Below, piece by piece: positions 2,651 to 61,830 of a stretch of 64,000 nt of DNA. A program made the position numbers and the translations under genes. The DNA is taken from positions 30,916 to 94,915 of the forward strand of contig JAFZSI010000017.1 of assembly GCA_017619445.1 (NCBI GenBank). Direction: 5' to 3'. This DNA is from Prevotella sp. (GTDB taxonomy: Bacteria; Bacteroidota; Bacteroidia; Bacteroidales; Bacteroidaceae). Position 1 is the first letter of the stretch; every line of letters starts with the position of its first letter. The notes beneath the pieces are model-generated. The model worked only from the letters and a program-made list of their open reading frames with translations. It was not told the DNA's origin and did not search any database.

Positions 2651-2857
2651 GTTTTTCTAGAAAATCTGAACGCAGAACTATGAGTTGTTTTCGTAAAGCG
2701 GCACTTTATTCTCGTAAAGTGGCACTTTGTTTCCGTAAAGTGGCACTTTGTTTCCGTAAAGTGGCACTTTATTCTCGTAAAGCATTACTTTGTTTTCGTA
2801 AAGCGATGAGTTATGTTCACAAAGCAATGGTTTACTTCCAAATTCTCTAGAAAATTT
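2651..2857. repeat. Array of seven 21-bp units bracketed by two CTAG-centred palindromes
   Basis: The 510-bp gap between the hydrolase gene and thrA holds no credible gene. A degenerate palindrome (TTTTCTAGAAAATCT, CTAG at 2657-2660) opens the repeat and a better copy, AAATTCTCTAGAAAATTT, closes it at 2840-2857. Between them, about 2690-2836, seven head-to-tail units of 21 nt begin with CGTAAAG. The four best (for example GTAAAGTGGCACTTTGTTTC) contain the small palindrome AAAGTGGCACTTT; later units drift (GTAAAGCGATGAGTTATG). Neither the units nor the intervals are constant, so this is not a CRISPR. Palindrome and unit recur in at least seven other gaps of the window. Confidence 0.85.
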
Positions 2858-2997
2858 GAATGTAAAGCAATGAGTTGTTTTCAGAATGCAATGCTATATA
2901 CTTATAAAGCATAGAAATAAGAGTCTGTTTATCCCGTGTTCTATGGTGTTTTCAACGTGTTTTCTGTCTGGTGAGCGCAAAAAAGGTTGGAAAATAT

Positions 2998-3028
2998 TTT
3001 GCCATGCGGCGATTTTGCTTTACCTTTG
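2998..3028 (+). promoter_or_regulatory. Promoter of the threonine operon
   Basis: TTTG at 2998-3001 and TACCTTTG at 3021-3028, separated by 19 nt, match the Bacteroidetes housekeeping promoter. The predicted transcript start is near 3035, giving a leader of about 58 nt with a short CCCCG/CGGGG hairpin (3047-3063). No threonine-rich leader peptide is visible, so classic attenuation is not supported. Confidence 0.8.
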
Positions 3029-3092
3029 CAAGCCGAATGGGTTATGCCCCGGTTGTTTCGGGGTTCCAGACGACATTAAATAATCATTAGCA

Positions 3093-5549
3093 ATGAAAGT
3101 ATTAAAATTTGGCGGAACGTCCGTAGGTTCCGTAAGCAGTATTCGCTGCTTGAAACGTATTGTAGAGACAGAGGCTCGGACGCAACCTGTCGTAGTAGTG
3201 GTCAGCGCATTGGACGGCATCACCGACAAGTTGATTGAAACCTCTGAGATTGCCCTGAAGGGCGACGAGCGATGGCGCGATGAGTTTGACGCAATGGTGG
3301 CGCGCCATCACCAGATGATAGACACCATCATCACCGACCCCAAAAAACGTGAGCACTTGTTCAACACCGTAGATCAGCTCTTCGAACAGCTGAAGAGCAT
3401 CTACTATGGCGTTTTCCTGATTCATGACCTGAGCGGGAAGACGATGGACGCTATTGAGAGCTATGGCGAGCGCCTGAGCTCGCACATCGTGGCGGCCTTG
3501 GTGAAGAACGGCAAGCGCATGAACGCGCGCGACTTCATCCGCACGGAGAAGAAGAACGGCAAGCACGCGCTCGACACCGACCTGACGGTACAACTGGTGC
3601 GCGAGGCGTTCGGAGAACTGTTCAACAACCCTGCCACTCAGAAGACCGTGGCCGTTGTGCCGGGTTTCATTTCAAGAGACCGCGACACCATGGAGACCAC
3701 CAACCTTGGAAGGGGCGGAAGCGACTACACAGCTGCCATCATTGCCGCCGCGCTCGACGCTGAGGTGCTGGAGATTTGGACCGATGTGGACGGATTTATG
3801 ACTGCCGACCCGAAGGTCATCAAGAGTGCCTACACCATCAACGAGCTGAGCTATGTGGAGGCCATGGAGCTGTGCAACTTTGGCGCAAAGGTGATTTACC
3901 CGCCTACCATCTATCCCGTTTGCATCAAGAATATTCCCATAAAGGTGAAGAACACCTTCAACCCTGAACACCCGGGCACGCTCATTAAGGAAAAGATTGA
4001 CGACGACATGAAGCCCATCAAGGGTATTTCGAGCATCAAGGGCACCACACTCATCACCGTGACGGGCCTTTCGATGGTGGGTGTGATTGGCGTGAACCGC
4101 CGCATCTTCACCACCCTGGCCGACCGCGGCATTTCGGTGTTCATGGTGAGCCAGGCATCGTCAGAGAACTCCACCTCTATCGGTGTGCGCGACGAAGACG
4201 CCGCTGCTGCCGTGGAAGTGCTTAACAAGGAGTTTGCCAAGGAGATTGAGACGGGTGCCATGTTCCCCATGCAGGCTGAGAGCGGCCTTGCCACCATCGC
4301 CATCGTGGGTGAGAACATGAAACACACGCCGGGCATTGCCGGAAAGTTGTTCGGAACCCTGGGACGCTCGGGAATCTCGGTGATTGCCTGCGCACAGGGT
4401 GCTTCAGAGACAAATATTTCGTTCGTGGTTGACGGGCGTTTCCTGCGCAAGTCGCTCAACGTGCTGCACGACTCGTTCTTCCTGTCAGAATACAAGGTGC
4501 TGAACCTTTTCATCTGCGGCATTGGTACCGTGGGCGGCATGTTGCTTGAGCAGATTCGCACCCAGCAGAAATTCCTCATGCAGTCGAGACGTTTGAAACT
4601 GAATGTTGTGGGCATCAGCGATGTCTATAACTTCATTCTCGACCGCGACGGCATTGACCTCGACAACTACGAGAAGATTCTCCGTGCGGGTGAACCGGCC
4701 AATACAGAGAAGATGCGCGACGAGATTGTGAAGATGAACATCTTCAACTCGGTGTTCGTAGATTGTACTGCCAGCCGTCAGATTGCCGGGCTTTATCAGA
4801 CTTTCCTTGAGCACAACATATCGGTGGTGGCTGCCAACAAGATTGCCGCCTCAAGCGACTACGACAGTTACCTGAAGCTGAAACAAACGGCCCGCGACCG
4901 AGGCGTTTGGTTCCGTTATGAGACCAACGTGGGCGCAGGACTGCCTATTATCGGCACCATCAACGACCTTTGCAACTCGGGCGACAAGATTCTGAAGATT
5001 GAGGCCATTCTTTCAGGTACGCTTAACTTCATTTTCAATGAGATAGCTGCCGACGTGCCCTTCTCAGAGACCGTGCGCAGAGCCAAGGAACAACGCTACT
5101 CGGAGCCCGACCCGCGCATCGACCTCAGCGGCACCGACGTTATCCGCAAGCTGGTTATTCTTACCCGCGAGGCTGGTTACAAGGTGGAGCAGGAAGACGT
5201 GGAGAAGCATCTTTTTGTGCCCGACAGCTACTTCGAGGGAAGTCTTGACGACTTCTGGGCTAAGTTGCCCGAGCTTGACGCTGACTTCGAGGCCCGCCGA
5301 AAAGTCTTAGAGGCCGAGGGAAAGCGTTGGCGCTTTGTGGCCACGATGGAGAACGGCAAGACAAATGTCGCTTTGAAGGAAGTGCCTTCCGACCATCCGT
5401 TCTTCCCGTTAGAAGGTTCCAACAACATTGTGCTGCTCACCACGGAGCGCTACAAGGAATATCCCATGCTGATTCAAGGTTATGGCGCAGGTGCTGCCGT
5501 CACCGCCGCTGGTGTGTTTGCCAATATCATGTCCATCGCCAACATCTAA
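3093..5549 (+). CDS. thrA: Bifunctional aspartokinase / homoserine dehydrogenase I
   Basis: An 818-residue fusion enzyme catalysing the first (aspartate to aspartyl phosphate) and third (aspartate semialdehyde to homoserine) steps of threonine and methionine synthesis. The kinase starts with KFGGTSVGS (residues 4-12) and has NLGRGGSDYTA and WTDVDGFMTADP. Two ACT regulatory repeats follow (GLSMVGVIGVNRRIF; ATIAIVGENMKHTPGIAGKLFGTLG). The dehydrogenase begins about residue 470 with the dinucleotide motif GIGTVGG and contains AANKIAAS and SGTLNFIFNE. The length matches the E. coli ThrA type. It is the first gene of an operon with apgM (30-nt gap) and thrC, and has its own canonical promoter. End-product control by threonine through the ACT domains is expected from the family; which effector acts here is not shown. 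Confidence 0.97.
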   Translation: MKVLKFGGTSVGSVSSIRCLKRIVETEARTQPVVVVVSALDGITDKLIETSEIALKGDERWRDEFDAMVARHHQMIDTIITDPKKREHLFNTVDQLFEQLKSIYYGVFLIHDLSGKTMDAIESYGERLSSHIVAALVKNGKRMNARDFIRTEKKNGKHALDTDLTVQLVREAFGELFNNPATQKTVAVVPGFISRDRDTMETTNLGRGGSDYTAAIIAAALDAEVLEIWTDVDGFMTADPKVIKSAYTINELSYVEAMELCNFGAKVIYPPTIYPVCIKNIPIKVKNTFNPEHPGTLIKEKIDDDMKPIKGISSIKGTTLITVTGLSMVGVIGVNRRIFTTLADRGISVFMVSQASSENSTSIGVRDEDAAAAVEVLNKEFAKEIETGAMFPMQAESGLATIAIVGENMKHTPGIAGKLFGTLGRSGISVIACAQGASETNISFVVDGRFLRKSLNVLHDSFFLSEYKVLNLFICGIGTVGGMLLEQIRTQQKFLMQSRRLKLNVVGISDVYNFILDRDGIDLDNYEKILRAGEPANTEKMRDEIVKMNIFNSVFVDCTASRQIAGLYQTFLEHNISVVAANKIAASSDYDSYLKLKQTARDRGVWFRYETNVGAGLPIIGTINDLCNSGDKILKIEAILSGTLNFIFNEIAADVPFSETVRRAKEQRYSEPDPRIDLSGTDVIRKLVILTREAGYKVEQEDVEKHLFVPDSYFEGSLDDFWAKLPELDADFEARRKVLEAEGKRWRFVATMENGKTNVALKEVPSDHPFFPLEGSNNIVLLTTERYKEYPMLIQGYGAGAAVTAAGVFANIMSIANI

Positions 5550-5579
5550 AAGATGGAAGCCGGTTAACACTGATTTGGT

Positions 5580-6839
5580 ATGAAACATATCATTATTCTT
5601 GGCGACGGTATGGCCGACCTGCCCGTTGAAAGACTGGGCGGGAAAACGCTGTTGCAATATGCCGACAAACCGATGATGGACATGCTGGCGCGCAAAGGGC
5701 GCACCGGCAGGCTCATCACCGTGCCCGAAGGTTTTCCTCCTGGCTCTGAGGTAGCAAACACCGCCATATTGGGTTATGACCTGAACAAGGTGTATGAAGG
5801 CCGCGGACCATTAGAGGCCGCAAGCATCGGCTACGAAATGGCTGACGACGATATGGCTATCCGATGCAACATCATCACCCTCGAAAACGGAAAAATCATC
5901 ACCCACAACGGCGGTAACCTGGAAACCAAAGACGGCGACGTGCTCATACGTTACCTGAACGAACACTTGGCAAAGCCTGTGAACGAGCAACTTGGCATCG
6001 AACGAGTGAAATTCATCACGGGCATTCAATACCGTCATTTGTTAGTTATCAAGGGCGGCTCGAAATATATTGAGTGCGCCCCACCCCACGACCATCCTAA
6101 CGAGCCTTGGCGACAGTTGTTGGTGAAGGCGGAGGAGAATGCACCCGTGGAGGAAGGGCGTATGACGGCACAAGAGACCGCTGACCTGATTAACGAACTC
6201 ATCCTGCGCTCCCAACAACTGCTGGCCGAACACCCGTTCAACAAGGCAAGAGCTGCACGCGGAGAGCGTCAGGCAAACAGCATCTGGCCGTGGAGCGGCG
6301 GCTACCGTCCGTCGATGGAGACACTCATGGAGCAATTCCCGCAAATCAAGTCGGGCACGGTGATTTCGGCTGTCGATTTGATTCGAGGCATCGGTCACTA
6401 CGCAGGTTTGAATATTGTGGAGGTTGAAGGTGCCACCGGACTTGCAGATACCAACTACGAAGGCAAGGCCGAGGCTGCCATCAAAGCCCTGCGTGAGGGT
6501 GACTTCGTGTTTGTGCATGTGGAAGCCAGCGACGAGGCTGGTCACGACGGTGATCTGGAACTGAAACTGAAAACCATCGAGTATCTCGACCAGCGGCTCA
6601 TTCGTCCCATCTACGAAGCGGTTCTGACTTGGGACGAACCCGTTTGCATCGCCATTCTTCCCGACCATCTGACGCCCGTTGAGAAGCGCATCCACGTGGG
6701 CGAGCCGGTGCCTTTCATCATCTGGCACCGCGACATTGAGCCTGACAACGTGCAGCGCTACGACGAGGTGGCTTGCGTCAACGGAAGCTACGGCATGTTG
6801 CGCCTGCGCGAATTCATGGAAGAACTGATGAAATATTAA
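5580..6839 (+). CDS. apgM: ApgM-type phosphoglycerate mutase homologue, candidate homoserine kinase substitute
   Basis: A 419-residue alkaline-phosphatase-superfamily protein of the archaeal cofactor-independent phosphoglycerate mutase family. Metal-site motifs are visible: ILGDGMADLP at the N-terminus with the phosphorylatable Thr/Ser region GSEVANTAILGYD, HVEASDEAGHDGD near residue 320, and ILPDHLTP with the metal-binding Asp-His. It sits between thrA and thrC with 30-nt and 12-nt spacers, and no GHMP-type thrB is present. In Bacteroidetes and some other phyla this gene replaces thrB in the thr operon, and comparative genomics has proposed it as a functional analogue of homoserine kinase. 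The family call is secure; the kinase role is inference from context. Confidence 0.9.
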   Translation: MKHIIILGDGMADLPVERLGGKTLLQYADKPMMDMLARKGRTGRLITVPEGFPPGSEVANTAILGYDLNKVYEGRGPLEAASIGYEMADDDMAIRCNIITLENGKIITHNGGNLETKDGDVLIRYLNEHLAKPVNEQLGIERVKFITGIQYRHLLVIKGGSKYIECAPPHDHPNEPWRQLLVKAEENAPVEEGRMTAQETADLINELILRSQQLLAEHPFNKARAARGERQANSIWPWSGGYRPSMETLMEQFPQIKSGTVISAVDLIRGIGHYAGLNIVEVEGATGLADTNYEGKAEAAIKALREGDFVFVHVEASDEAGHDGDLELKLKTIEYLDQRLIRPIYEAVLTWDEPVCIAILPDHLTPVEKRIHVGEPVPFIIWHRDIEPDNVQRYDEVACVNGSYGMLRLREFMEELMKY

Positions 6840-6851
6840 AAACATCCGAAT

Positions 6852-8168
6852 ATGCAATACTACAGCACCAACAAACAGGCCCCGATGGCCGACCTGCATA
6901 AGGCAGTAGTGAAAGGACTGGCCGAGGACCGCGGCCTCTATATGCCTGAAACCATCCACAAACTGCCCAAAGAGTTTTTCGACAACATTCAGGACATGTC
7001 GTTCCAGGACATTGCCTACAATGTGGCCAGCGCCTTCTTTGGCGAGGACGTTGATTTGGACGCATTGCAGGAGATTGTCTATGACACCCTGCGCTTCGAC
7101 TGCCCCGTGAAGAAAGTCACCGACAACATCTACGCCCTGGAACTCTTCCATGGTCCCACGCTCGCCTTCAAGGACGTGGGCGCACGTTTCATGGCACGAC
7201 TGCTGCAATACTTCATCAACATGGACGGCGAGCAACAGGTAAACGTGCTCGTGGCTACCAGCGGCGACACCGGCTCGGCAGTGGCCAACGGATTCCTCGG
7301 TGTGGAGGGCATTCACGTCTATGTGCTCTACCCCAAAGGCAAGGTGAGCCCCATTCAGGAATGCCAGTTCACAACGCTTGGAAAAAACATCACCGCCATC
7401 GAGGTTGATGGCGTGTTCGACGATTGCCAGGCTTTGGTGAAGGCAGCTTTCATGGACGAGGAACTCAACAAGCACATGAAACTCACCTCCGCCAACTCTA
7501 TCAACGTGGCACGTTTCCTTCCGCAGGCATTCTATTACTTCAATGCCTACGCAAGGATGAAAGAAATTGTAAATTGCAAAGAGTCAGATTGCAAATCCTT
7601 GGTGATGTGCGTGCCCAGCGGCAACTTCGGGAACATCTGCTCTGCCCTCTTCGGTCATGCCATGGGACTGCCCATCAAACGCTTCATCGCCGCCAACAAC
7701 GCCAACGACGTTTTCTACAACTTCCTGAAGACAGGTGAGTACAATCCCAAGCCCTCGGTACAGACACTCGCCAATGCAATGGACGTGGGCGACCCCAGTA
7801 ACTTCGCACGCATCTACGACCTTTACGGAGGCTCTCACGAGCGCATCAGCGACCTCATCAGTGGCGCCACCTATACAGACGACATGATTCGCGAGACCAT
7901 GCGCCAATGCTACGCTGAGACAGGTTATCTGCTCGACCCGCACGGCGCCTGCGGCTATCGCGCCCTGAAGGAACAACTTGCAGACGACGAGATTGGTGTG
8001 TTCTGCGAGACCGCCCACCCCGCCAAATTCAAGGAGAAAGTTGACGAAATCCTCGGCATAGACACCCCCATCCCCGACCGCTTAGCAGCATTTATGCAGG
8101 GCGAGAAGCAAAGCGTGCCAATGACCAAAGACTTTGCCGACTTCAAAGCCTATTTGATGAAACAATAA
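6852..8168 (+). CDS. thrC: Threonine synthase
   Basis: A 438-residue PLP enzyme converting O-phosphohomoserine to threonine. The N-terminus (YYSTNKQAP, GLAEDRGLYMPE) is typical of the short bacterial ThrC class. The PLP lysine lies in HGPTLAFKDVGARF (about residue 106), followed by LVATSGDTGSAVANGF and the PLP-phosphate loop region CVPSGNFGNICSALF. The gene ends the thr operon, 12 nt after the apgM homologue, and a strong hairpin at 8206-8243 separates it from the convergent pyrI. No frameshift or missing motif is seen. Confidence 0.97.
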   Translation: MQYYSTNKQAPMADLHKAVVKGLAEDRGLYMPETIHKLPKEFFDNIQDMSFQDIAYNVASAFFGEDVDLDALQEIVYDTLRFDCPVKKVTDNIYALELFHGPTLAFKDVGARFMARLLQYFINMDGEQQVNVLVATSGDTGSAVANGFLGVEGIHVYVLYPKGKVSPIQECQFTTLGKNITAIEVDGVFDDCQALVKAAFMDEELNKHMKLTSANSINVARFLPQAFYYFNAYARMKEIVNCKESDCKSLVMCVPSGNFGNICSALFGHAMGLPIKRFIAANNANDVFYNFLKTGEYNPKPSVQTLANAMDVGDPSNFARIYDLYGGSHERISDLISGATYTDDMIRETMRQCYAETGYLLDPHGACGYRALKEQLADDEIGVFCETAHPAKFKEKVDEILGIDTPIPDRLAAFMQGEKQSVPMTKDFADFKAYLMKQ

Positions 8169-8205
8169 AGAAGAAAAAACGTCAAGGATTATTTGACAAG
8201 ATACG

Positions 8206-8730: not shown

Positions 8731-8734
8731 CTTT

Positions 8735-14755: not shown

Positions 14756-14781
14756 GAAACTCTGTTTTTGGAACTATAAGA

Positions 14782-14841
14782 ACAAAGCATAGGTTTACGT
14801 TCAAATTCTCTAGAGAATTTATGCGTAAACCTATGCTTTGT
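14782..14841. terminator. Nested palindrome between convergent PBP1A and LytTR genes
   Basis: Two 18-nt arms, ACAAAGCATAGGTTTACG (14782-14799) and its exact reverse complement (14824-14841), flank a perfect 18-nt palindrome AAATTCTCTAGAGAATTT (14803-14820). The whole 60-nt segment can fold into one long hairpin. Its position between convergent stops suggests bidirectional termination, although no long T tract follows. It is the cleanest copy of the dispersed CTAG-palindrome family. Confidence 0.75.
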
Positions 14842-14866
14842 TTATGTAAATGATGCAATTAGGGCG

Positions 14867-15601
14867 CTATAGCACGGTGTGGCTGTCGAGGAATGCCTGT
14901 ACGTCGTCCTTGTAACTGTCTGAGATGGGAATGAGGATGTTGTCGAAGGAGATGCGCTGGTGGTCGACGACGCGTACTTTGCTCATGTGGACGATGAAGG
15001 AGCGGTGTGTTCGCATAAACTCGGGGGTGGGCAGATGCTCCTCGAGTTTCTTCATGCTCATGAGCGACATGACGGGTTTCTTGCCATTGTCGAGATAGAC
15101 TTTGACGTAGTCTTTGACGCCCTCGATGTAGGTGATGTCGTCGAGGTTGATGCGCATGAGTTTGTACTCGCTCTTGAGGAACAGGAAACGGTCTTGCCCG
15201 ATTCTTGTTCCCGCATTGGCAGCATCCGCCGACTGTTCATCACTTGTGAACAGTTTCAGGGCCTTGTTGCAAACTTCCTTGAACTCCTCGAATGCGATGG
15301 GCTTGAGCATATAGCCAATGGCGTTGACTTTATAGCCGTCGATGGCATACTGACTGAATGCGGTGGTGAAAATCACCTTGGTGCGTGCAGGCAGAATCCT
15401 GGCGAACTCCAGTCCGCTGAGCTCAGGCATCTGAATGTCGAGGAAAATCAAATCTACAGGATTGTCGCGCAGCTGTCGCATGGCAGCAACGGCACTATTG
15501 AAAGAGCCTTGCAGCTTGAGAAAAGGCACTTTCTTGGCATAACTCTCGAGCAGGGCCGCAGCCAACGGCTCGTCGTCGATAATGGCACAAGTGATAATCA
15601 T
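14867..15601 (-). CDS. LytTR-family response regulator
   Basis: A 244-residue two-component regulator. The receiver domain (residues 1-120) has the acidic pocket IIDDEP, the phospho-acceptor Asp in LIFLDIQMPELSG and the conserved Lys in GYMLKPIAFEEF. A linker rich in Ala/Ser leads to a C-terminal LytTR DNA-binding domain (FLFLKSEYKLMRINLDDITYIEG, DYVKVYL, FMRTHRSFIV). It is the last gene of the efflux operon, 66 nt after the sensor kinase, the spacer being an ACAATTT tract. Likely controls the same operon, but its sites cannot be identified here. Confidence 0.93.
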   Translation of the reverse strand: MIITCAIIDDEPLAAALLESYAKKVPFLKLQGSFNSAVAAMRQLRDNPVDLIFLDIQMPELSGLEFARILPARTKVIFTTAFSQYAIDGYKVNAIGYMLKPIAFEEFKEVCNKALKLFTSDEQSADAANAGTRIGQDRFLFLKSEYKLMRINLDDITYIEGVKDYVKVYLDNGKKPVMSLMSMKKLEEHLPTPEFMRTHRSFIVHMSKVRVVDHQRISFDNILIPISDSYKDDVQAFLDSHTVL

Positions 15602-15667: not shown

Positions 15668-16702
15668 CTATCTCTGTATTTCAATTCTTGAGCGGTATTT
15701 CTTTCCGTCTTCGGAAACGCCTTTGGTCCATTGGTAACGCTGAGGATAGACAAGAGCCAACCGTCGTTCCACCTGCTGCAGACCGATTCCGTGGCCACTT
15801 CTGTCCTGTGCGTCTTTCGGGAAATTAGAATTTTCTATGTCGCACACGATGCGCTGGTCATCAGAGCTTAGCTGTATGTCGATGAAACTGGGCTCTGTGG
15901 AACTAACGCCATGCTTGAAGGCATTCTCTACCAGCGAGATGAAGATGAGCGGAGCCACCGGCACGTCGGGTGAGTCGCAATGGGCGCTGAACTTCACATC
16001 TACATTCGCGGGCAGGCGAAGCTTCATCAGGTTGACGTAATTCTCCATGAACTGCACCTCCTGTGAGAGGCTGACGAGCGGCTGCTGATTGTCGTAGAGC
16101 ATGTGGCGCAGCAGCTTGCTGAGCTCCTGAATGGCTTCTTGTGCCTTCTCTTTATCAAACGCAGTAAGTGCGTAAATATTATTCAACGTGTTCAACAAAA
16201 AGTGCGGATTGATTTGCGAGCGCAGGTTCTTCAGTTCAGCCTCTTTGGCTTCTGCCTCAGCATTCAGCTTTGCATCGAGACTTTCGTGCCATTGTTCGGA
16301 AAGCACAATGGTCAATGCGATTGCAGCAGCCATCGACAGGTTGAAAAGGTTGCGAAAAATGTAGACCAAATTCATTTTGACAGAGGAATCAGGGTTGGCC
16401 CTAAACTCCTCGTCCATCACCAGATACATCTTCCACAGAAAGAAATGCTCAGCAATGCCCACCGTCAAGATGAGCACAATGTTTACTATCCAGAAAAGGC
16501 GGTGGTTGCCCTCTACATACTTCTTGGGTATGAGCCAAAAGTAGTTGGTGTAGAACACCAGCATCAGCATGGACGTCAACACCCCAGCCTCCACGAAACG
16601 GACAAGACTAAGGGGCACGCTATGGTGGAAAGGCAACGCAGAGATGAAATAGAGTGCAATCCACACACATACGTGAAGCATATATGATGGGCGTCTATTC
16701 AT
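15668..16702 (-). CDS. LytS/YehU-type sensor histidine kinase
   Basis: A 344-residue membrane sensor. Four hydrophobic segments lie in the first 160 residues, followed by a coiled stretch (LDAKLNAEAEAKEAELKNLRSQ) and the His_kinase domain with the phospho-acceptor His in QINPHFLLNTLNNIYAL, then an ATPase domain (LVENAFKHGV, GHGIGLQQVERRL). The start is the ATG at 16702, MNRRPSYMLH; an in-frame extension upstream has no hydrophobic or conserved content and lies inside the permease gene. The ATG overlaps the end of the permease gene by 8 nt (ATGAATAG), which points to translational coupling. Partner of the LytTR regulator downstream; signal unknown. Confidence 0.92.
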   Translation of the reverse strand: MNRRPSYMLHVCVWIALYFISALPFHHSVPLSLVRFVEAGVLTSMLMLVFYTNYFWLIPKKYVEGNHRLFWIVNIVLILTVGIAEHFFLWKMYLVMDEEFRANPDSSVKMNLVYIFRNLFNLSMAAAIALTIVLSEQWHESLDAKLNAEAEAKEAELKNLRSQINPHFLLNTLNNIYALTAFDKEKAQEAIQELSKLLRHMLYDNQQPLVSLSQEVQFMENYVNLMKLRLPANVDVKFSAHCDSPDVPVAPLIFISLVENAFKHGVSSTEPSFIDIQLSSDDQRIVCDIENSNFPKDAQDRSGHGIGLQQVERRLALVYPQRYQWTKGVSEDGKKYRSRIEIQR

Positions 16703-17915: not shown

Positions 17916-18078
17916 CTTGTGTTATTTACGGATTTACTATTTACTATTTACGAATTATACTATTTGACAATTTTACTATTTCACAATTTTACTATTATCG
18001 AGATACCTCTTTTTTTCGCTTTGCTCAAGGAACTTTGAACTTTGAGCTATTCTCTCTCCTCTCTCCTCTTTTCTCTCC

Positions 18079-22382: not shown

Positions 22383-22592
22383 AAAAAAGAGGCCGTACCG
22401 TGATTGTGATGAAAACTCCGAGTATAAGAAGAGTTGAGTGCCCTAAGCCTTTGTAATCCACCGGCATATAGCTGTCCCTGTTGCCAAGGATGTGGCCCGC
22501 CATCAGCAAAAGAAGCGACCTCGGTTTTTCTGATTATTTGATGAGTATCCCGATCTAACCGATACGGCCCATATTTCTTTTTTCTGTTTTTC
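22383..22592 (-). ncRNA. ssrS: Structured small RNA, candidate 6S RNA
   Basis: A stand-alone RNA gene on the minus strand. The structured part starts at 22570 (GGGCCGTATCG) and ends near 22388. A 10-bp closing stem joins GGCCGTATCG (22569-22560) to CGGTACGGCC (about 22400-22391), followed by TC and a T8 tract. Further in, AAAACCGAG pairs with CTCGG-AG-TTTT, leaving a large bulge, and GCCAC / GTGG plus GGCA / TGCC form the distal stem. A long single hairpin of about 180-190 nt with a central bubble, strong promoter and own terminator is the plan of 6S RNA, the RNA polymerase regulator; the Bacteroidales-1 RNA has been related to 6S in the literature, as far as I recall. It lacks the SRP RNA, RNase P and tmRNA signatures. 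The symbol is provisional. A 77-codon frame across it is considered non-coding. Confidence 0.6.
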
Positions 22593-22630: not shown

Positions 22631-22740
22631 TTTTTTGGCATTTTTCTCATTCTCTCCGCATCCGCACACCCTGCTTCTCCACCCAAAATGCCATCTGGGG
22701 AAACAGTTCTGATACCCCGAGGAGACAAACCTGCACTTTG

Positions 22741-22845
22741 CGAATAAATTCTCTAGAGAATTTGAACGTAAACCTGCACTTTACGTTCGTAAAGCGTATG
22801 TTTGTTGAAACAAAGCGGATATTTAGCAAAACAAAGCGTATATAT
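22741..22845. repeat. CTAG palindrome and GTAAAG units upstream of the 6S-like RNA
   Basis: A perfect palindrome AAATTCTCTAGAGAATTT at 22746-22763 is followed by GAACGTAAACCTGCACTTTACG and units of about 21 nt (TTCGTAAAGCGTATGTTTGTTG, AAACAAAGCGGATATTTAGC, AAAACAAAGCG). The rest of the 665-bp gap holds a GC-rich CCCCATACCCCACTCAGGGGG hairpin at about 22858-22878 and no gene. Confidence 0.8.
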
Positions 22846-32506: not shown

Positions 32507-32784
32507 ATAAAATATTATCATAACAACCATCTTTTTCCCGAAAAAAATCATGCCCCGGACAAAGATATTTTCACCCCACTTACAGTTTGCAGCAAAACCC
32601 GCGCCTTTGCTTTCTTTTTCATGCTTTACACCCTTTTCTGCTACAAATCCGTTTCCCGACTGGTTTTGTGTCAGGAGTTAACTGGAGTTATCTGAAGTTA
32701 AGAGGTCTTTGATCTCTGGAGTTATCGGACAAAAGCTTTTTCAAACCAAAACGAATGCTATTACATAATCCGCCCTGGTTTTTT

Positions 32785-33070: not shown

Positions 33071-33153
33071 TAATCCCCCACCGGGGGGTAAGGGGGGCTC
33101 ACCATGCTATGAGTTATTCTCTACAAAATTTGCTTGGCAGAAACACCATAATC

Positions 33154-33530
33154 CTTTACGTACAAATTCTCTAGAAAATTTCATAATAAACCTACACTTT
33201 GTTGTCGTAAAGCATAGGTATATGATTGCAAAGCGTATCTTTACAAACGTTACACACGGGTTTGAGGTTCAAATGTTAAAATTGAAAATTCTGTGCACAA
33301 TTGTGCACAAAATTGGGAGAACTGCATTGTTATGGCGGGTTTACATGAGTGCAAGATTATTGTTTGACAGGAAGAAAACAAAAACGTGGAGGATATGGAA
33401 CAGGGCTTTGCATGGGCATATATACAGTTTAGAATCATAAACCTGCACTTTACGATTGCAAAGTGCTGGTTTACGGTCGTAAAGTTTAGGTTTACGCATA
33501 AATTCTTTAGAAAATTTGAACGTAACTCTT
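33154..33530. repeat. CTAG palindromes, GTAAAG units and a TGTGCACA palindrome before glyA
   Basis: Palindrome cores AAATTCTCTAGAAAATTT (33164-33181) and AAATTCTTTAGAAAATTT (33500-33517) bracket about 320 nt. Each core is next to degenerate units (ACACTTTGTTGTCGTAAAGC; CACTTTACGATTGCAAAGTG; GGTTTACGGTCGTAAAG). At 33292-33309 lies the 18-nt perfect palindrome TGTGCACAATTGTGCACA. Frames crossing the region look random. Confidence 0.75.
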
Positions 33531-33781
33531 AAATGTATGAAAACAATGCTAAGAGCTCTGAGAGCAAAGCAATGGTTTACGCGCAGAAACGGGCAACTTT
33601 TTCTGTTGGTGGCTCACCCCACCGACACAGGCGTAACATTCGGGTTACTGATTCGGGTTAATAGTCTGCAAACGCATCGGGTGGGTATCATTTTGAATTT
33701 GCCGAGTACTGGCAAGGATTGTTTCTGCAAAAAAACAGCGAAATAATTGTCGATTGAGTGGGTTATTCGGGATTTTTTCAG

Positions 33782-46241: not shown

Positions 46242-46383
46242 AAATTCTCTAAAAAACTTACGAACACATGCCTCGGACAGACACTCGCCACTTTCCTCGC
46301 GTCTTTCAGGTTTGCCCCCATCCTCTTGGCTATGCCAGCGTATTGTTCTGGAATCGGCAAGCAAAACGCCCAAAACACAACTC

Positions 46384-46430
46384 ATTGCTTTACGCGCAAA
46401 TTCTCTAGAAAATTTGTGCGTAAAGCATCA
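46384..46430. repeat. CTAG palindrome with GCTTTACGC/GCGTAAAGC arms
   Basis: Core AAATTCTCTAGAAAATTT (46398-46415) flanked by TTGCTTTACGCGC and GTGCGTAAAGCA, which are themselves inverted repeats. The 565-bp gap 46160-46724 holds this, the TGTGCACA hairpin and the pheT promoter, and no gene. Confidence 0.8.
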
Positions 46431-46537
46431 CTTTAGCATCGCCATTGCCACATTTACCGAAATAAAGCGATGAGTTATGGCTCCAACACGCAGGTTTATG
46501 GCTATGAAACCCACGGTTTTGCTGCCTGCAAGTCAAT

Positions 46538-53241: not shown

Positions 53242-53361
53242 CTTTTCGGCAATTATTTTGCGCCGAGCCTCATTTTAGCGTTTTTTCATTCTGTTTTCGC
53301 TAAGCGGCACATAGAATCAATGGTTTTCTGGAACAGCACCATAATGCCGCGCCCCATACGC

Positions 53362-53485
53362 AAATTTTCTAGAGAATTTCGTCGTAAACCTAAGCTTTGT
53401 TGCCGTAAAGTGCCACTCTGTTGCAGTAAAGTGCCACCCTGTTGCAGTAAAGCGATGCTTTACGCGCAAATTTTCTAGAAAATCT
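53362..53485. repeat. Second array of 21-bp units between two CTAG palindromes
   Basis: Cores AAATTTTCTAGAGAATTT (53362-53379) and AAATTTTCTAGAAAATCT (53468-53485) flank four units with 21-nt period, starting GTCGTAAACC, GCCGTAAAGTGCCACTCTGTT, GCAGTAAAGTGCCACCCTGTT and GCAGTAAAGCGATGCTTTACGC. The same design as 2651-2857. The 413-bp gap 53186-53598 has no gene; the right part has only the imperfect repeat GTGCGGTTACTTC. Confidence 0.85.
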
Positions 53486-53598
53486 GAACGTAAAGCAAAG
53501 AGTTGTATTAGCAATGTTTAGAATGGTGGAAATAACTCACGGTGCGAAGGACAGGAATCTGCACCGGAGTGTGCAGTTACTTCTCGATGAGCGTGCGG

Positions 53599-56048: not shown

Positions 56049-58820
56049 ATGGAATTAGCAAGTAAATACGATCCGCAAAACGTTGAATCGAAATGGTATC
56101 AGTACTGGCTTGACAACAAGCTGTTCGCAAGTAAGCCCGATGAGCGGGAACCCTATACAATAGTCATTCCGCCGCCCAACGTGACGGGTGTGCTGCACAT
56201 GGGCCACATGCTTAACAACACCATTCAGGACATCCTGGTGCGCCGTGCTCGCATGGAGGGCAAAAACGCATGTTGGGTGCCGGGCACCGACCACGCCTCT
56301 ATTGCAACCGAGGCCAAGGTGGTGAAGAAACTGGCTGGCGAGGGCATCAAGAAAAGCGACCTCAGCCGCGAACAGTTCCTTGAGCATGCGTGGGACTGGA
56401 CTCACGAGCACGGAGGCATCATTTTGAAACAGCTGCGACGTCTGGGAGCCAGCTGCGACTGGGACCGCACAGCCTTCACCATGGATGAAAAGCGCTCTAT
56501 GAGCGTCATCAAGGTGTTTGTTGACCTCTATAACAAAGGCCTCATCTATCGTGGCCTGCGCATGGTGAACTGGGACCCGAAGGCTTTGACTGCCCTTTCG
56601 ACCGAGGAAGTGATTTACAAGGAAGAGCACTCCAAACTATACCACCTGAAATACTACGTGGATGGCCTTACCACGCTTGAGAACGAAGAACAGCTGAAGG
56701 CCGACGGCAACGTGATTCACAAGGATGAGAAAGGCTACTATGCCGTGGTTGCCACCACACGACCGGAAACCATCATGGGCGACACCGCCATGTGCATCAA
56801 CCCCAAGGACCCCAAGAACCAATGGCTCAAGGGTCGCAAGGTGATTGTGCCGCTGGTGAACCGTGTCATCAAGGTGATTGAAGACCGCTACGTGGACATT
56901 GAATTCGGTACAGGCTGTCTGAAAGTCACTCCCGCCCACGACACCAACGACTACATGCTGGGCAAAACCCACGACTTGGAGACCATAGACATCTTCAACC
57001 CCGACGGCACCATCAGCGACCAGAGCCCTCTCTATGTTGGCATGGACCGCTTCGACTGCCGCAAGCAGATAGTTGAAGACTTGCAGGCTGCAGCACTCAT
57101 GGAGCGCATGGAAGAATACACCAACAAGGTTGGCTATTCGGAGCGCAATCCCGATACTGCCATCGAGCCGAGACTCTCGCTGCAGTGGTTCCTCAAGATG
57201 AAGCACTTTGCCGACATCGCTCTGCCTCCCGTGTTGAACGGCGAAATGAAATTCTATCCGCAGAAGTATGTCAACACCTACAAGAACTGGCTTGAGAACA
57301 TTCAAGACTGGTGCATCTCGCGTCAGCTGTGGTGGGGTCACCGCATACCGGCTTACTATATTGAAACCTCCCCCAACCCCTCCCAAGGAGGGGAGTCTGT
57401 GATTCCTGAGGGTAGTTTCGTTGTGGCAGAGAATGAAGAGAAAGCTCGCAAACTGGCGATAGAGAAGTTCCCCTCCTTGGGAGGGGTTGGGGGAGGTTTC
57501 ACCCTGCGTCAGGATGAGGACGCGCTCGACACGTGGTTCTCATCATGGCTTTGGCCAGTGTCGCTGTTCGACGGCATCAACAACCCCGGCAACGAGGAAA
57601 TCAACTATTACTACCCCACCAGCGACCTCGTGACGGCTCCCGACATCATCTTCTTCTGGGTGGCCCGTATGATTATGGCCGGTGAGGAATACATGGGCAA
57701 ATATCCGTTCAAGAATGTATATTTCACAGGCATCGTCCGCGACAAACTGGGACGAAAGATGTCCAAATCGCTCGGCAACAGTCCCGACCCCATCGAGCTG
57801 ATTGAGAAATTCGGTGCCGACGGTGTGCGCATGGGCATGATGCTCTCCGCTCCCGCAGGCAACGACATTCTGTTTGACGAGGCTCTCTGCGAACAGGGAC
57901 GCAACTTCAACAATAAAATTTGGAACGCTTTCCGACTGGTGAAAGGATGGGCTGTTACTGACAGTCCTGTTAGTGACGATACAACCGCAACAAACCAGAC
58001 GGCTGTTGCCTGGTTTGAAGCCAAGCTTAAGCAAACCAACGCCGAAATTGACGACCTGTTCAAGAAATACCGCATCTCAGAGGCTTTGATGGCTGTCTAT
58101 AAACTGTTCTGGGACGAGTTCTCGAGCTGGTATCTGGAAATGGTGAAACCCGCCTACGTCAACGGACAGGCACAACCCATCGACAAAACAACCTACGACG
58201 CAACCCTGAATTTCTTTGATGCTCTGCTCAAGATGCTGCATCCGTTCATGCCGTTCATCACCGAGGAACTGTGGCAGGCTCTCTATGAACGCCAGCCCGG
58301 CGACAGCATCATGCGCGAGAAACTGGAGATTGAAGCACCCACAGAGGCCGACGCCCAACTGACGGAGGCCATAGAGCAGGTGAAACAGATTGTCAGCGGT
58401 GTGCGCATGGTGCGCAACCAGAAGAACATCGCCCCCAAAGAGGCTTTGGAGCTGCAAGTGGTGGGCAGCAACCGCCACGAGCGGTTTAACGCCGTTGTTA
58501 CCAAGATGGCCAACCTGAAAGCCATCAGCGTGGTGGCAGAAAAGAGTGCTGATGCCAGTGCTTTCATGGTGGGCACCGACGAGTTTGCCGTTCCTCTGGG
58601 CAACCTCATCGATGTGGCTGCCGAGATTGAAAAGCAGGAAGCACAGCTGAAACACCTTGAAGGCTTCCTCACAGGCGTCATGAAGAAACTCTCCAACGAA
58701 AAGTTTGTTGCCAATGCTCCCGAAGCAGTGGTGACACTCGAGCGGAAGAAACAGAGCGACGCAGAAGAAAAGATTGCTGCCCTGAAAGAGTCAATCACCG
58801 AACTGAAAAAGAAACTATGA
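56049..58820 (+). CDS. valS: Valyl-tRNA synthetase, with a repeat pair inside the frame
   Basis: A 923-residue class Ia synthetase charging tRNA-Val. HIGH motif in [13 protein letters not shown] (about residues 43-55), CP1 editing domain ([12 protein letters not shown]), KMSKS motif in [10 protein letters not shown] (about 567-576), anticodon-binding region and C-terminal coiled-coil arm ([23 protein letters not shown]). Start [10 protein letters not shown]; the ORF is open 23 codons further but from a TTG in the promoter. Residues 439-484 are encoded by a 32-nt repeat, 74 nt of ordinary sequence and the exact inverted repeat; they read [11 protein letters not shown] and [10 protein letters not shown]. 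The next gene overlaps its stop by 4 nt. Confidence 0.97.
57363..57500. repeat. Perfect 32-nt inverted repeat inside valS
   Basis: GAAACCTCCCCCAACCCCTC and 12 more nt at 57363-57394 are the exact reverse complement of 57469-57500, with 74 nt between. The same 32-mer occurs at 60104-60135. The arms code for Pro/Ser/Gly-rich residues within the frame. Confidence 0.95.
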
Positions 58821-60094
58821 ACATCATCCAAACCATCCTGGGCGCACGAAAAAGTGCGTCCATGATTCTTTTCATCCTATTGGCAAGCATGGTGCTCACA
58901 GCCTGCAACGACGAAGCTGAGAGCATTGACGAGGTCAACAAGCAAACCGTGCTGGTGTTTCTTCCCTGGTCGGGTTCAAACACTCACACTGGCCTTCTGC
59001 CAGAAATCAAAGCCAACCTCGACAGCATTGAGACATCCATTGTAGGCGGCAAGGGACTTGACGGAACACGGGCACTGGTGTATTTCTGTGAGACGGCCAA
59101 CTCTGCCACACTCTATGAGATTACCTTCAACGAGCAGAAAAACGTCTGCGAGCACACCACGCTGAAAACTTATACTGGCCACGACTATACCACCGCCGAA
59201 GGAATGAAGGCCATCTTAGAGGACATGAAATCCATGGCTCCCGCCCTGAACTATGCCATGATGGTGGGCTGCCACGGCACAGGATGGACCTATACCGACA
59301 GCTGGGAGAAATACCCCTACTATGCCAAGCCTTTCAGCTACGAGGAAAATGACGGAAGCCCCCAGACACGTGCATACGTTAGCAATGGCGAAGACCCTGA
59401 GACACGTTTCTACGGCAGTGTGGACGACATCAAGACCTTCAGTACCGACATTCCCACGCTGGTAGAAGCCATCAAGCTGGCAGGCATCAAGATGCAGTTC
59501 ATCATGTTCGACGACTGCTACATGGCCAATGTGGAAGTGGCCTACCAATTGCGCGATGTCACAAACTTCCTTATTGCCTCCACCTGCGAGGTGATGGCCA
59601 TTGGATTCCCCTATCAGACCATGTTTCCCAAGCTTGCCAATTGGCAGCCCAATTATACAAGCGCCATCGATGCCTTCGGGGACTTTTACAAGAACTACGT
59701 CTATCCTTTCGGCACCGCCGCTGCCATCGACTGCCGCAAGATGGAAGAGCTGGCTGCTGCCATGAAGGCCATCAACAACAAATACACCTTCGACGAGACA
59801 TTGTTAGACAGCATTCAGGTGCTCGACGGGTTCAAAACCCACGTCTTCTACGATTTTGGCGACTATGTGGACCACCTGTGCCCAGAGCGTGCATTGAAAA
59901 ACCGCATTGAGTCGGCGCTGAGCAATGCGGTTACAAGAAAAGCCTGCACCGACGAGTTCTACACCAACCTCTATGGGTATGGCTACTCGGTGAAAATAAA
60001 CAAGTTTTCTGGCCTGACCATCTCCGACCCCAGCCAAAGCAGCGTGGTGAAGAAAAGCATCCAGCGCACCGACTGGTATAAGGCCACACACTGA
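58817..60094 (+). CDS. Clostripain-family (C11) cysteine peptidase, lipoprotein
   Basis: A 425-residue protein with a lipoprotein signal ([14 protein letters not shown], Cys30). The C11 catalytic pair is visible: His153 in MVGCHGTGW and Cys234 in [17 protein letters not shown], followed by [15 protein letters not shown]. Peptidases of this family cut after Arg or Lys and are common in gut Bacteroidales; the target is unknown. The ATG overlaps the valS stop by 4 nt (ATGA), so it is translationally coupled to valS, an odd partner for an exported protease. It ends in front of the GC-rich repeat at 60104. Confidence 0.88.
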
Positions 60095-60103
60095 TTTGAT
60101 ATT

Positions 60104-60190
60104 GAAACCTCCCCCAACCCCTCCCAAGGAGGGGAGTCTGTTTTTCTCCCTCCCTTTGGGAGGGTTGGGGTGGGTTCCTGGGGTGGGTTC
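60104..60190. repeat. Third copy of the valS 32-mer plus a CCCTCCC/GGGAGGG palindrome
   Basis: GAAACCTCCCCCAACCCCTC and 12 further nt (60104-60135) are identical to the left arm in valS, and the matching extends about 8 nt on each side. After GTCTGTTTTT comes CTCCCTCCCTTTGGGAGGG and twice GGGGTGGGTTCCT. It lies between convergent stops and may end transcription. Confidence 0.9.
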
Positions 60191-60191
60191 C

Positions 60192-61445
60192 TCAGAACGT
60201 ATAGTTGAATCCCAGCGACAGATATTCTTTCAGCTGCCAGTAGCCGTGGTCGCCGTCGCGCTTGGCACCGTCGTCAAAGCGCGGATAGATGAAGAGGTTC
60301 GACGAGATGTATTTGTTGAACTTGAAAGTAAAGGTGTTTTCCCATTCCCACTCCACGCGCTTGTAGGACGAGAATCCGTACATGCGAGTTTTCCAGTTGA
60401 TGTTTTCAGAAATCTTCCATTCCAAGTCAATGGTGAAAAGCGAGCCAAGCTCGTGCAACACGTGCTTTCCCTCTTTCAGGCTGTTGCGCGTGGCCAGTGC
60501 ACCACGGTCCACATAAATCATGTTGTAGGCCAACGGGCTGAGGTGAATGCTTCCGGTGAGTTTCTTGTTCAGCGCCTCCACGGCATAGTCCATACCAAGC
60601 GACACGTTGAGCTTGAAGGGCGAGAGGAAGTCGGAATACACAAACAGGTCGTTGCTCTTATAGCCTCGCACAAACTGCGTCTGCGCCACCACCTGCAGCG
60701 TGTAGTACCACCGTTTGGTGGCCTGCAAGCCCAGTTTACTCGTCAGACGCAACAAGTCGTCCGTGCTCTTGAACTCATGCAGGCTGTCGCCCTTACTTGT
60801 CATGAATCCCAGTTTCATTTCCAGCTTGTTGTCCCACTTCACCTTCTGTTTATTGTTGTAGTTAGCCTCCATGGTGATGCTTCCCAGCATCGAGTAGTTG
60901 CTTTCGCCACCCTTATACCAGTTGCCACTGATGTAGTTTTGCAGGAACTGCAGGAAGTAGTCGCCCTTATGAGTCCAGAACTTCGGTTTCTGCACCTCAA
61001 TCTCCAGGGGCACCGTGTCCTCGGCAAGCGGCTCGGGTGCGATGCGCTCAACCAGGTCAACCGAGTTCCTGATGGGCTCGTCGGCTCCCCGTCGAATGCT
61101 CCCGGCCTCGCTGAGCCTGTTCTGGCTGTTCACAACCAGGTCAGGGCGGTTCATATACACGCGCATCAGCGCACGGTCTATCTCATCCACCACCGCATCC
61201 TTGCCCGACAGATTGCCATCTAAGCGCAGCAGTTTGTTCGCCGCCGTATGATAGAACGTGGTGGGGCCAAACAGCCTGTAGAACCTTGCGTTTGCTGCAG
61301 GCTGACGGTTTTGGCCGATGTTCACTTGCTGAATGGAGTCCAGCCTCTGCTTCAGAATGGCCAGCGAGTCGGCATAGTTGCCCATAGCCGTGGCCATTGT
61401 CGTGCTCAGCAATGCTGCTGAAAGAAAAAGATAGCGTAGTTTCAT
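60192..61445 (-). CDS. DUF3078 family protein
   Basis: A 417-residue protein starting MKLRYLFLSAALLSTTMATAM (signal peptide) at 61445; the frame remains open upstream but into repeats. The body resembles the DUF3078 family of Bacteroidetes (NYISGNWYKGGESNYSMLGSITMEANYNN, QKVKWDNKLEMKLGFMTSKGD, SVYSDFLSPFKLNVSLGMDYA-like blocks) and ends in a beta-rich KEYLSLGFNYTF with a terminal Phe, typical of outer-membrane beta-barrels. Outer membrane location is therefore likely; the molecular function of the family is unknown. Confidence 0.82.
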   Translation of the reverse strand: MKLRYLFLSAALLSTTMATAMGNYADSLAILKQRLDSIQQVNIGQNRQPAANARFYRLFGPTTFYHTAANKLLRLDGNLSGKDAVVDEIDRALMRVYMNRPDLVVNSQNRLSEAGSIRRGADEPIRNSVDLVERIAPEPLAEDTVPLEIEVQKPKFWTHKGDYFLQFLQNYISGNWYKGGESNYSMLGSITMEANYNNKQKVKWDNKLEMKLGFMTSKGDSLHEFKSTDDLLRLTSKLGLQATKRWYYTLQVVAQTQFVRGYKSNDLFVYSDFLSPFKLNVSLGMDYAVEALNKKLTGSIHLSPLAYNMIYVDRGALATRNSLKEGKHVLHELGSLFTIDLEWKISENINWKTRMYGFSSYKRVEWEWENTFTFKFNKYISSNLFIYPRFDDGAKRDGDHGYWQLKEYLSLGFNYTF

Positions 61446-61609
61446 ATCGTTATTGTTTTTTGTTGTTTTCTGTATGAATTGCCACCGCACCCCCGTACCC
61501 CCGTACCTCCACACCTCCAGCGTTTCTTGTGGCAAAGATAGCAAATCTTTTCTTTGCCAGCAAATATGCGGCAACATTTTTCGCAGAGAAGCAACCATTG
61601 CATGGGTTT

Positions 61610-61830
61610 TGACACGCAAAGCATCACTTTGTGATGCCAAAGTGCAGGGTTACGACAACAAAGCATTGCTTTACCACAGCAAAGCATAGGGTTACGGTGA
61701 AATTCTCTAAAGAATTCATGCGCAAAGCATGGGTTTACGTTTCTGACTGCAAGCACAGTTTTTGCAAAGTGTAGGTTTACGATGAAATTCTCTAGAAAAT
61801 TCAGCTCTAAAGTGCGGGTTTATGAGAATG
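61610..61830. repeat. CTAG palindromes and AAAGC units before yidC
   Basis: Cores AAATTCTCTAAAGAATTC (61700-61717) and AAATTCTCTAGAAAATTC (61785-61802) are accompanied by units such as GCAAAGCATCACTTTGTGATGCC, CAACAAAGCATTGCTTTACC and GGGTTTACGTTTC. Core spacing is 67 nt, so about three units lie between. The 640-bp gap 61446-62086 has no gene. Confidence 0.8.

What the first reader, a model, noticed from the sequence alone, without database searches (positions are those of the whole stretch)
2651..61802. Dispersed intergenic repeat: 18-nt CTAG-centred palindrome with 21-bp GTAAAG units
Seen directly: cores of the form AAATTCTCTAGAGAATTT occur at 2651-2670 (degenerate), 2840, 14803, 22746, 33164, 33500, 46241 (degenerate), 46398, 53362, 53468, 61700 and 61785. 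All are in gaps between genes and none in a coding region. They are flanked by CGTAAAGC / GGTTTACG words in opposite orientation on the two sides. About one copy per 5 kb in 64 kb is far more than expected for an 18-nt palindrome. Inference: a REP-like or RNA element, or the binding site of a chromosome-organising or transcription protein. I do not recall a named family with this consensus.
Basis: partly seen in the sequence, partly recalled or inferred. Interest (0 to 1): 0.78.

Follow-up and report, generated by a model that had tools for sequence, protein, structure and literature searches.

The report
HU-linked repeats every ten kilobases
Some Prevotella-type gut bacteria carry hundreds of small palindromic DNA arrays set roughly ten to fifteen thousand bases apart between their genes, and these arrays occur together with one particular family of HU-like DNA-binding proteins, which suggests an undescribed way of organising a bacterial chromosome.

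Summary
The repeat is real: 11 cores (3 mismatches or fewer) in the window against 0.02 expected, and 329 (2 or fewer) in the 2.87-Mb genome against 0 for the reversed pattern. Cores are flanked by 19-bp two-half units at a 21-22-bp period. Sister genome G502 keeps the core, and some positions, with different units. In G000, element clusters are evenly spaced: 0 of 60 gaps under 4 kb (9.6-18 expected), CV 0.49 against 0.74-0.87; G502 has 0 of 38, with a weaker CV result. The likely partner is one HU-HIG clade: in 12 of 12 core-rich genomes (one copy broken) and 0 of 18 without an exact core. A core lies within 600 bp upstream of 15 of 20 testable HU genes, and a core pair upstream of 18 of 18 vapE genes with that HU neighbour. 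No Rfam match; no named family in my searches. Best reading: chromosome-wide binding arrays of an HU-family architectural protein; a mobile HU cassette is the main rival. Binding and function are inferred.

The parts
2653..2914 (.). Element cluster 1: degenerate core at 2651-2668, an array of about seven 21-bp units, core 2840-2857, then further units
   Evidence: (21-bp tandem array 2685-2805)
14767..14881 (.). Element cluster 2: core 14803-14820 with 19-bp inverted units on both sides; the orthologous gap in G502 lacks it
22713..22825 (.). Element cluster 3: core 22746-22763; the orthologous gap in G502 holds a core with different units
33102..33581 (.). Element cluster 4: cores 33164-33181 and 33500-33517 with units, upstream of a serine hydroxymethyltransferase gene
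46338..46502 (.). Element cluster 5: core 46398-46415 with units; the degenerate core-like site 46242-46259 nearby is not recognised by the HMM
53302..53542 (.). Element cluster 6: cores 53362-53379 and 53468-53485, 106 bp apart, with units between them
61616..61865 (.). Element cluster 7: cores 61700-61717 and 61785-61802, 85 bp apart, with units, upstream of a YidC-family gene

Best explanation
The repeat is a chromosome-wide set of site arrays for one clade of HU-HIG (HU/IHF-superfamily) DNA-binding proteins. Shown by computation: a strongly conserved 18-bp palindromic core; 19-bp units of two inverted half-sites repeating every 21-22 bp (two helical turns); the same core upstream of most HU-clade genes tested; co-occurrence of core and HU clade; even spacing in the two high-copy genomes (mean 10.6 kb in G000, 16.4 kb in G502); unit sequences largely replaced between sister species while the core and some positions stay. 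Inferred: HU-clade dimers occupy the units on one face of the helix, nucleating at the core, and control their own gene through the upstream copy. Each array becomes a bent nucleoprotein node that marks or anchors an interval of about 10 kb. Unit sequences change when protein specificity or paralogue set changes. New arrays may arise with duplicated HU cassettes (element plus HU gene), because at two positions G000 has an HU cassette where G502 has a solo element. My odds: HU clade is the partner, about 0.8; it binds core and units, about 0.65; the role is chromosome architecture rather than self-spread, about 0.45.
For: Co-occurrence: the best HU hit per genome is 5.3e-31 or better and 43% identity or more in 12 of 12 genomes chosen for 6 or more exact cores (in G418 only as two adjacent fragments, 56% and 45% identity, best E 3e-12); in 0 of 18 genomes without an exact core, where the best hit is 36% at 1.4e-14 (Fisher p 1.2e-8, or 2.2e-7 counting intact copies only). 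Linkage: of 22 HU-clade loci, one sits at a contig edge and one is broken; of the other 20, 15 have a core (3 mismatches or fewer) within 600 bp upstream, in G000 at -162, -162, -163, -163 and -195. In a search by vapE protein alone, all 18 examined vapE loci with the HU neighbour carry a core pair 65-66 bp apart, against 1 of 12 without a detected HU (p 2.2e-7). Copy number: G000 7 HU loci and 329 cores, G502 4 and 194. Spacing: G000, 72 clusters in 791 kb, 0 of 60 gaps under 4 kb against 9.6-18 expected, CV 0.49 against 0.74-0.87, 0 of 1000 simulations at each of five gap-size thresholds; at 3 mismatches it holds separately in a first 439-kb and a second 352-kb set (0 of 2000 each). G502: 0 of 38 gaps under 4 kb, p 0.002 or less. 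Unit turnover: AAAGTGGCACTTT 23 in G000 and 0 in G502, CGTGAGTTA 2 and 53. Positions: 5 of 8 compared slots hold the element in both species.
Against: No binding, expression or chromosome-conformation data exist here. HU-family proteins are usually weakly specific (recalled). Spearman of HU paralogue number against exact core count is 0.53, p 0.10. Five of 20 tested HU loci have no core within 600 bp: G000 C74, G529, G502 C17 (only a degenerate site by eye), G122 and G513 (pair 2.2-2.4 kb away); three of the 15 positives are 3-mismatch sites. The 25 genomes with 1-4 exact cores were not, and relatedness was not corrected for. Spacing depends on how cores are called: with 2 mismatches the first G000 set has CV 0.60, p 0.01; with 4 mismatches 1 and 2 G000 gaps under 3 kb appear, and the second G502 set then has 3 of 27 under 3 kb, as expected by chance (p 0.28-0.41). 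G502 CV p ranges 0.009-0.117 and one gap is 66.9 kb. G529 and G351 hold too few cores to test. Of 249 genus genomes 213 lack an exact core, so the system is optional. Three of eight compared slots lack the element in G502; for the five slots mapped without other selection it is 2 of 5 shared, p 0.15.
Confidence: 0.5

Rival explanations
1. A mobile element family. The HU cassette (element plus HU gene, about 620 bp) is the autonomous form, the solo arrays are its MITE-like derivatives, and the minimum spacing reflects target immunity of the Tn7 or Mu kind (recalled comparison) rather than a chromosome role.
For: Four G000 HU cassettes share about -238 to +385 at 84-92% identity with unrelated flanks. 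Two positions hold an HU cassette in G000 and a solo element in G502. Many species carry a compact form, core-25-core or core-47-core. In G233 a larger repeat occurs with the pair, with one core and without it. The exact core is patchy: 36 of 249 genus genomes.
Against: I saw no transposase or recombinase in the cassette and, by eye, no target-site duplication at the junctions read; transposases of the DDE or AAA+ kinds were not searched for. Few weak relics: HMM clusters rise only from 70 to 73 between E 1e-5 and 0.01. 5 of 8 positions are shared between species at 75-86% DNA identity. In G000 long gaps are scarce as well as short ones.
Confidence: 0.27
2. Operators of an HU-clade regulon: the arrays regulate transcription of neighbouring genes.
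For: The core lies upstream of most HU-clade genes tested and in the vapE-HU divergent region. Nearly all copies are in gaps between genes.
Against: No clear orientation bias: convergent 31, divergent 26, tandem 46 of 103 classified clusters, background 74, 84 and 151 of 309 (42 further clusters lay at locus ends or inside called ORFs and were left out). Convergent gaps hold 12 of 65 and 10 of 39. Even spacing is not expected of operators.
Confidence: 0.1
3. REP/BIME-type palindromes spread by a RAYT (Y1 transposase).
For: Mosaic of alternating palindromic units between genes; Y1_Tnp matches over the Pfam cut-off exist in G122 and G233.
Against: The window genome, with the most copies found, has only a sub-threshold Y1 match (20.8 bits, cut-off 23), G108 and G164, without an exact core, have better ones, and none of the ten Y1 loci has a core in the fetched flanks of about 1.5 kb (one 4-mismatch site).
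Confidence: 0.03
4. Structured RNA or bidirectional terminators.
For: The core and some arms are inverted repeats that could fold; matching changes on both arms in L063/L126.
Against: Unit halves are complementary at chance or below, no clear orientation bias, no Rfam match.
Confidence: 0.03
5. The even spacing is a by-product: close copies are lost because recombination between them deletes genes, and no node function exists.
For: Pairs of cores may collapse: the single-core copy L181 in G233 looks like a 65-bp deletion. Five short control words in G000 gave CV 0.55-0.89 over 6-15 gaps with 0-1 gaps under 3 kb, too few to show that other repeats differ.
Against: Four repeated 12-mers in G502 (three overlap, so about two families) show CV 0.97-1.27 with 2-4 of 13-14 gaps under 4 kb. 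Loss of close copies does not explain the lack of long gaps in G000.
Confidence: 0.07

Closest known systems
REP/BIME elements with RAYT transposases
   Same: Hundreds of short palindromic, intergenic copies, mosaic composition, a partner gene with the same repeat beside it
   Different: Likely partner is an HU-HIG protein, not a Y1 transposase; conserved core with species-specific units; even spacing
BrickBuilt MITE of Porphyromonas gingivalis (PMC4596501; outline, abstract and passages seen)
   Same: Bacteroidota, intergenic, minisatellite units of about two helical turns
   Different: BrickBuilt has 23-nt units, 19 copies in ATCC 33277 and IS-like terminal inverted repeats; here 21-22-bp two-half units, a palindromic core, up to 329 cores and an HU partner
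Dispersed sites of chromosome-organising proteins (MatP/matS, Noc sites, SlmA sites, parS; recalled)
   Same: A palindrome repeated over the chromosome and read by a dedicated DNA-binding protein (here inferred)
   Different: Here the protein is of the HU/IHF superfamily, sites are arrays, and spacing is even; no extra ParB goes with the core (17 of 20 genomes have one ParB_N match)
HU-HIG proteins (PF18291; Burroughs et al. 2017, Cell Cycle, seen only as a reference in PMC5906684, not read)
   Same: Six of six HU-clade proteins scanned match PF18291 above its cut-off, as does L046
   Different: No cognate DNA element is known to me for any member; all five NCBIfam HU_rel matches are below that model's cut-off; genomes without an exact core have other HU-HIG-like matches (25 in G092)
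Target-immune transposons such as Tn7 and Mu (recalled)
   Same: Arrays of about 22-bp binding sites; immunity would space copies
   Different: No transposase or AAA+ partner seen, but neither was searched for systematically

Membership tests
REP/BIME-RAYT | Many intergenic palindromic copies in one genome | tested here: met
   329 cores; 6 of 72 cluster centres in ORFs of 120 aa or more
REP/BIME-RAYT | RAYT (Y1_Tnp) gene flanked by the repeats | tested here: not met
   10 Y1 loci from 14 genomes, no core in flanks of about 1.5 kb
REP/BIME-RAYT | GTAG or CGTC foot beside the hairpin | not tested
   feature taken from the listed title and abstract start of PMC3733652 only
MITE / BrickBuilt | Terminal inverted repeats matching a resident transposon | tested here: inconclusive
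   pairs of cores could act as inverted ends but I saw no transposon with such ends and did not search for one systematically
MITE / BrickBuilt | Target-site duplication and empty sites | tested here: inconclusive
   filled and empty repeats in G233 without a clear duplication by eye; window 14803 absent in G502 but without a clean junction
HU-HIG (PF18291) | Match above the curated cut-off | tested here: met
   50.9 to 71.8 bits against 26.2 in 7 of 7 proteins scanned
HU-HIG (PF18291) | HU fold with DNA-bending arms | not testable with these tools
   structure job interrupted and the tool then switched off; PDB sequence search gives only weak HU hits, E 0.19 and above
Noc/ParB-type system | Extra ParB paralogue in core-bearing genomes | tested here: not met
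   of 10 genomes with cores 9 have one ParB_N match and G418 five; of 10 without an exact core 8 have one and G033 and G178 two
Known RNA family | Rfam match at gathering score | tested here: not met
   only 6S-Bacteroidales-1 and a tRNA in the window

The most novel reading that the evidence does not exclude
A chromosome-wide ruler made of HU-family proteins. Several HU-HIG paralogues, each reading its own half-site word, pair as homo- or heterodimers on 21-bp units around a universal core and build a node every 10 kb or so. As in PRDM9 hotspots (recalled), protein specificity and perhaps a thousand half-sites (my estimate) turn over together between sister species, while the core and part of the node positions persist. 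In G502 the two halves of a unit use different words (inner AACGT-like, outer ATCTC- or AACTC-like; 1 of 95 identical against 7.5 expected), as heterodimers would.
Probability: 0.22. Interest if true: 0.93.

Novelty: new variant of a known kind. Interest (0 to 1): 0.8.

Why it matters
HU-family proteins are abundant in bacteria but are usually regarded as weakly specific packers of DNA (recalled); here one clade is tied to a sequence-defined, evenly spaced set of arrays. That would give a natural, testable system for what sets bacterial chromosomal intervals near 10 kb, and a bacterial case of a DNA-binding protein and its many sites changing together between sister species. Records titled as isolates carry both core and HU gene (Xylanibacter ruminicola Ga6B6, Prevotella ruminicola KHT3), so binding, knock-out and Hi-C are feasible in principle. 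Hallella mizrahii carries cores; its HU gene was not looked for.

Tried and rejected
RAYT partner: not linked. Noc-like ParB paralogue: not linked. VapE as the general partner: rejected, since the window genome (85% complete) has no vapE hit, other vapE relatives lack the core (29 of 30 loci), and vapE without a detected HU mostly lacks the pair. RNA hairpin or terminator: disfavoured. Phased A-tract curvature as the common feature: dropped by eye because G502 units lack the AAA/TTT tracts; not computed. Phage origin: 4 IMG/VR stretches carry the core; L142, L143 and parts of L144 match named bacterial contigs at 95-98%, L145 matched none in that comparison, so at least three look like host DNA. 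BrickBuilt: different units and ends. First spacing controls (five short words) gave too few copies in G000 (CV 0.55-0.89, 6-15 gaps, 0-1 under 3 kb) and the script stopped before finishing G502; replaced, where four G502 12-mers qualified and none in G000. G529 and G351 were fetched to repeat the spacing test but have too few cores. Left and right first units more alike within a copy: supported in VUNG, ONHQ and DLDU (p 0.0025, 0.013, 0.035), not in CAMCBZ, JAFTFC, OMZS or G000 (p 0.13, 0.99, 0.96, 0.65). Short words such as GTAAAGC and GTAAACC are common in both G000 and G502 and do not separate them; only the longer unit words do. Printed 'rcL' rows are reversed but not complemented (a lower-case bug) and were not used. 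My notebook gives 15 of 19 for HU loci with a core; the recount is 15 of 20.
Full report
1. Observation. The core matches 11 times at 3 mismatches or fewer in the window against 0.02 expected, and 329 times at 2 or fewer in the window's genome (G000; 2,865,063 bases, 81 contigs, 85% complete), against 0 for the reversed pattern. Of these, 115 fit the Y/R consensus exactly. An HMM built from copies in 791 kb finds 73 clusters at E 0.01, seven of them in the window. Rfam gives nothing on the repeat.

2. Anatomy. From the core outwards: about 3 bp, then 19-bp units separated by 2-3 bp, so most core-to-core distances are 42-43, 64-66, 85, 106, 127 or 148 bp, with some others such as 21, 50 and 170. 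Each unit has an inverted half-site at either end. In G000 the common half-site words are AAAGC, AAACC, AAAGT, AACTC and AACGT, and the two halves combine at chance (26 of 165 identical, 24.8 expected). In G502 inner and outer halves use different words (1 of 95 identical, 7.5 expected). Units 1 and 3 carry more information than unit 2. In many species the element is compact: core-47-core (51 pairs at 65 bp, one locus counted twice) or core-25-core (19 pairs at 43 bp).

3. Distribution. By record title 113 are Prevotella, Prevotellaceae, Xylanibacter, Hallella, Bacteroidaceae or Bacteroidales; one is 'uncultured bacterium', and single cores in Aquimarina, a Saprospiraceae and a Nanoarchaeota bin may be chance. 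Of 249 genomes of the window's genus 36 have an exact core, and of 301 in the family sample 4. Exact matching undercounts degenerate cores.

4. Position and spacing. Elements lie between genes without clear regard to gene direction: 31 convergent, 26 divergent and 46 tandem of 103 classified clusters, background 74, 84 and 151 of 309; 28 clusters at locus ends and 14 inside called ORFs of 80 aa or more were left out (G000 and G502 again). In G000 they are over-dispersed. With cores called at 3 mismatches, a first 439 kb (window included) gave CV 0.45 against 0.85 (sd 0.12) for random intergenic placement and a second 352 kb gave 0.39 against 0.81 (sd 0.12), 0 of 2000 simulations each; at 2 mismatches the first set gave 0.60, p 0.01, and at 4 mismatches one and two gaps under 3 kb appear. 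Pooled and HMM-defined, 0 of 60 gaps are under 4 kb (minimum 4.2 kb, mean 10.6 kb) against 9.6-18 expected at five intergenic-length thresholds. G502 has 0 of 38 gaps under 4 kb against 4.2-6.8 expected (p 0.002 or less), with CV 0.64, p 0.009-0.117 and one gap of 66.9 kb; at 4 mismatches its second set shows 3 of 27 gaps under 3 kb, as chance would give. Controls are thin: four repeated 12-mers in G502 (about two families) have CV 0.97-1.27 and 2-4 of 13-14 gaps under 4 kb; in G000 no 12-mer qualified and five shorter words gave CV 0.55-0.89 over 6-15 gaps.

5. Turnover. G502 has contigs of the same length as OMZS01000002.1 and OMZS01000001.1 (RUG107), and is syntenic with the window at 75-86% identity. 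It keeps the core but has other units: GTCGTGAGATA 22 against 0 in G000, CGTGAGTTA 53 against 2, AAAGTGGCACTTT 0 against 23. Of eight orthologous slots compared, five hold the element in both: G000 C6:31859 and window 22746, the gap of L007/L220 (chosen because it matched), and the HU loci C15 and C79b (looked up because they hold HU cassettes). Three do not: window 14803, C1:36057 and C1:46316 (the last mapped only by a flank 1.7 kb away). Against 39 of 280 gaps in G502 that hold an element, 5 of 8 has p 0.002, 4 of 7 without L007 p 0.009, and the 2 of 5 mapped without other selection p 0.15.

6. The HU link. All-against-all comparison of the core loci showed one recurring neighbourhood: a vapE-like gene (BT4734-like_N plus VapE domains) divergent from a 132-aa HU-HIG protein. 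Because those loci had been picked by the core, I searched 249 genomes by vapE protein alone. Of 49 genomes with a match at 1e-150, the loci of 30 were examined: 18 had the HU neighbour and all 18 have a core pair 65-66 bp apart, 272-469 bp upstream of vapE; of 12 without detectable HU, 1 has a pair, 3 a single core-like site and 8 none. VapE itself is not general: G000 has none. I then searched the HU protein in 12 genomes with 6 or more exact cores and 18 without an exact core. Clade members are in all 12 (broken in G418), 7 loci in G000 and 4 in G502, and in none of the 18. I chose the genomes; the 25 with 1-4 cores were not included, and relatedness was not corrected for. Of the 22 HU-clade loci, C79a sits at a contig edge and G418 is broken; of the other 20, 15 have a core (3 mismatches or fewer; three of them at exactly 3) within 600 bp upstream, G122 and G513 have a pair 2.2-2.4 kb away (as has G418), and C74, G529 and G502 C17 have none at that threshold.

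7. The cassette. G000 HU copies C45, C47, C15 and C79b share about -238 to +385 around the HU start at 84-92% identity with unrelated flanks; the shared stretch ends before a stop codon, so the frames run into flanking DNA. C47 and C14 have syntenic HU copies in G502 (C17, C38). At the C15 and C79b positions G502 has solo elements instead.

8. Mechanism. The common thread is one HU-HIG clade. Dimers of an HU-type protein on phased two-half units, nucleated at a conserved core, would explain the two-turn period, the copy upstream of the HU gene (self-control) and the turnover of units with protein specificity. Even spacing then suggests a chromosome-wide role; target immunity of a mobile cassette is the main rival. 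Binding, self-control and node function are inference.

9. Literature. The answered searches brought up no named family with this core; most subscription papers are not held, and no search was made with the core sequence itself. Seen: PMC4596501 (outline, abstract, passages), PMC5771137 (passages), PMC8040213 (passages), PMC5906684 (passages), PMC2817692, PMC3733652 and PMC6379681 (listing and abstract start). Burroughs et al. 2017 on HU/IHF clades could not be opened.

Noticed in passing
window 22385-22569 (-): 6S-Bacteroidales-1 RNA (Rfam RF01693, 126 bits) beside element cluster 3
   Followed up: no
window 17925-17996, 15905-15955 and 32669-32741: Other short stretches that match many places in G502, so probably other dispersed repeats
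   Followed up: no
L417 reverse strand 2578-2754: A separate stretch of about 177 bp next to the C15 HU cassette with about 20 matches, many partial, across G502 contigs
   Followed up: no
L046 2723-5881 and relatives: Divergent vapE-HU locus with a core pair, found in 18 of 30 genomes examined; its own function is unknown
   Followed up: partly
L176-L184 (G233): A larger dispersed repeat family of G233 occurs with the core pair, with one core, or without it
   Followed up: partly
G233 (L179, L180), L033, L037, L075, L080: Core variant with CGAG in place of CTAG at the centre; in L179 and L180 both cores carry it in mirror orientation
   Followed up: no
G092: 25 HU-HIG-like matches in one genome without an exact core: paralogue expansion also happens outside the clade
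   Followed up: no
G000 HU loci C15, C45, C47, C79b: HU frames lack a shared stop codon and run roughly 70-200 codons into unrelated flanking DNA
   Followed up: no
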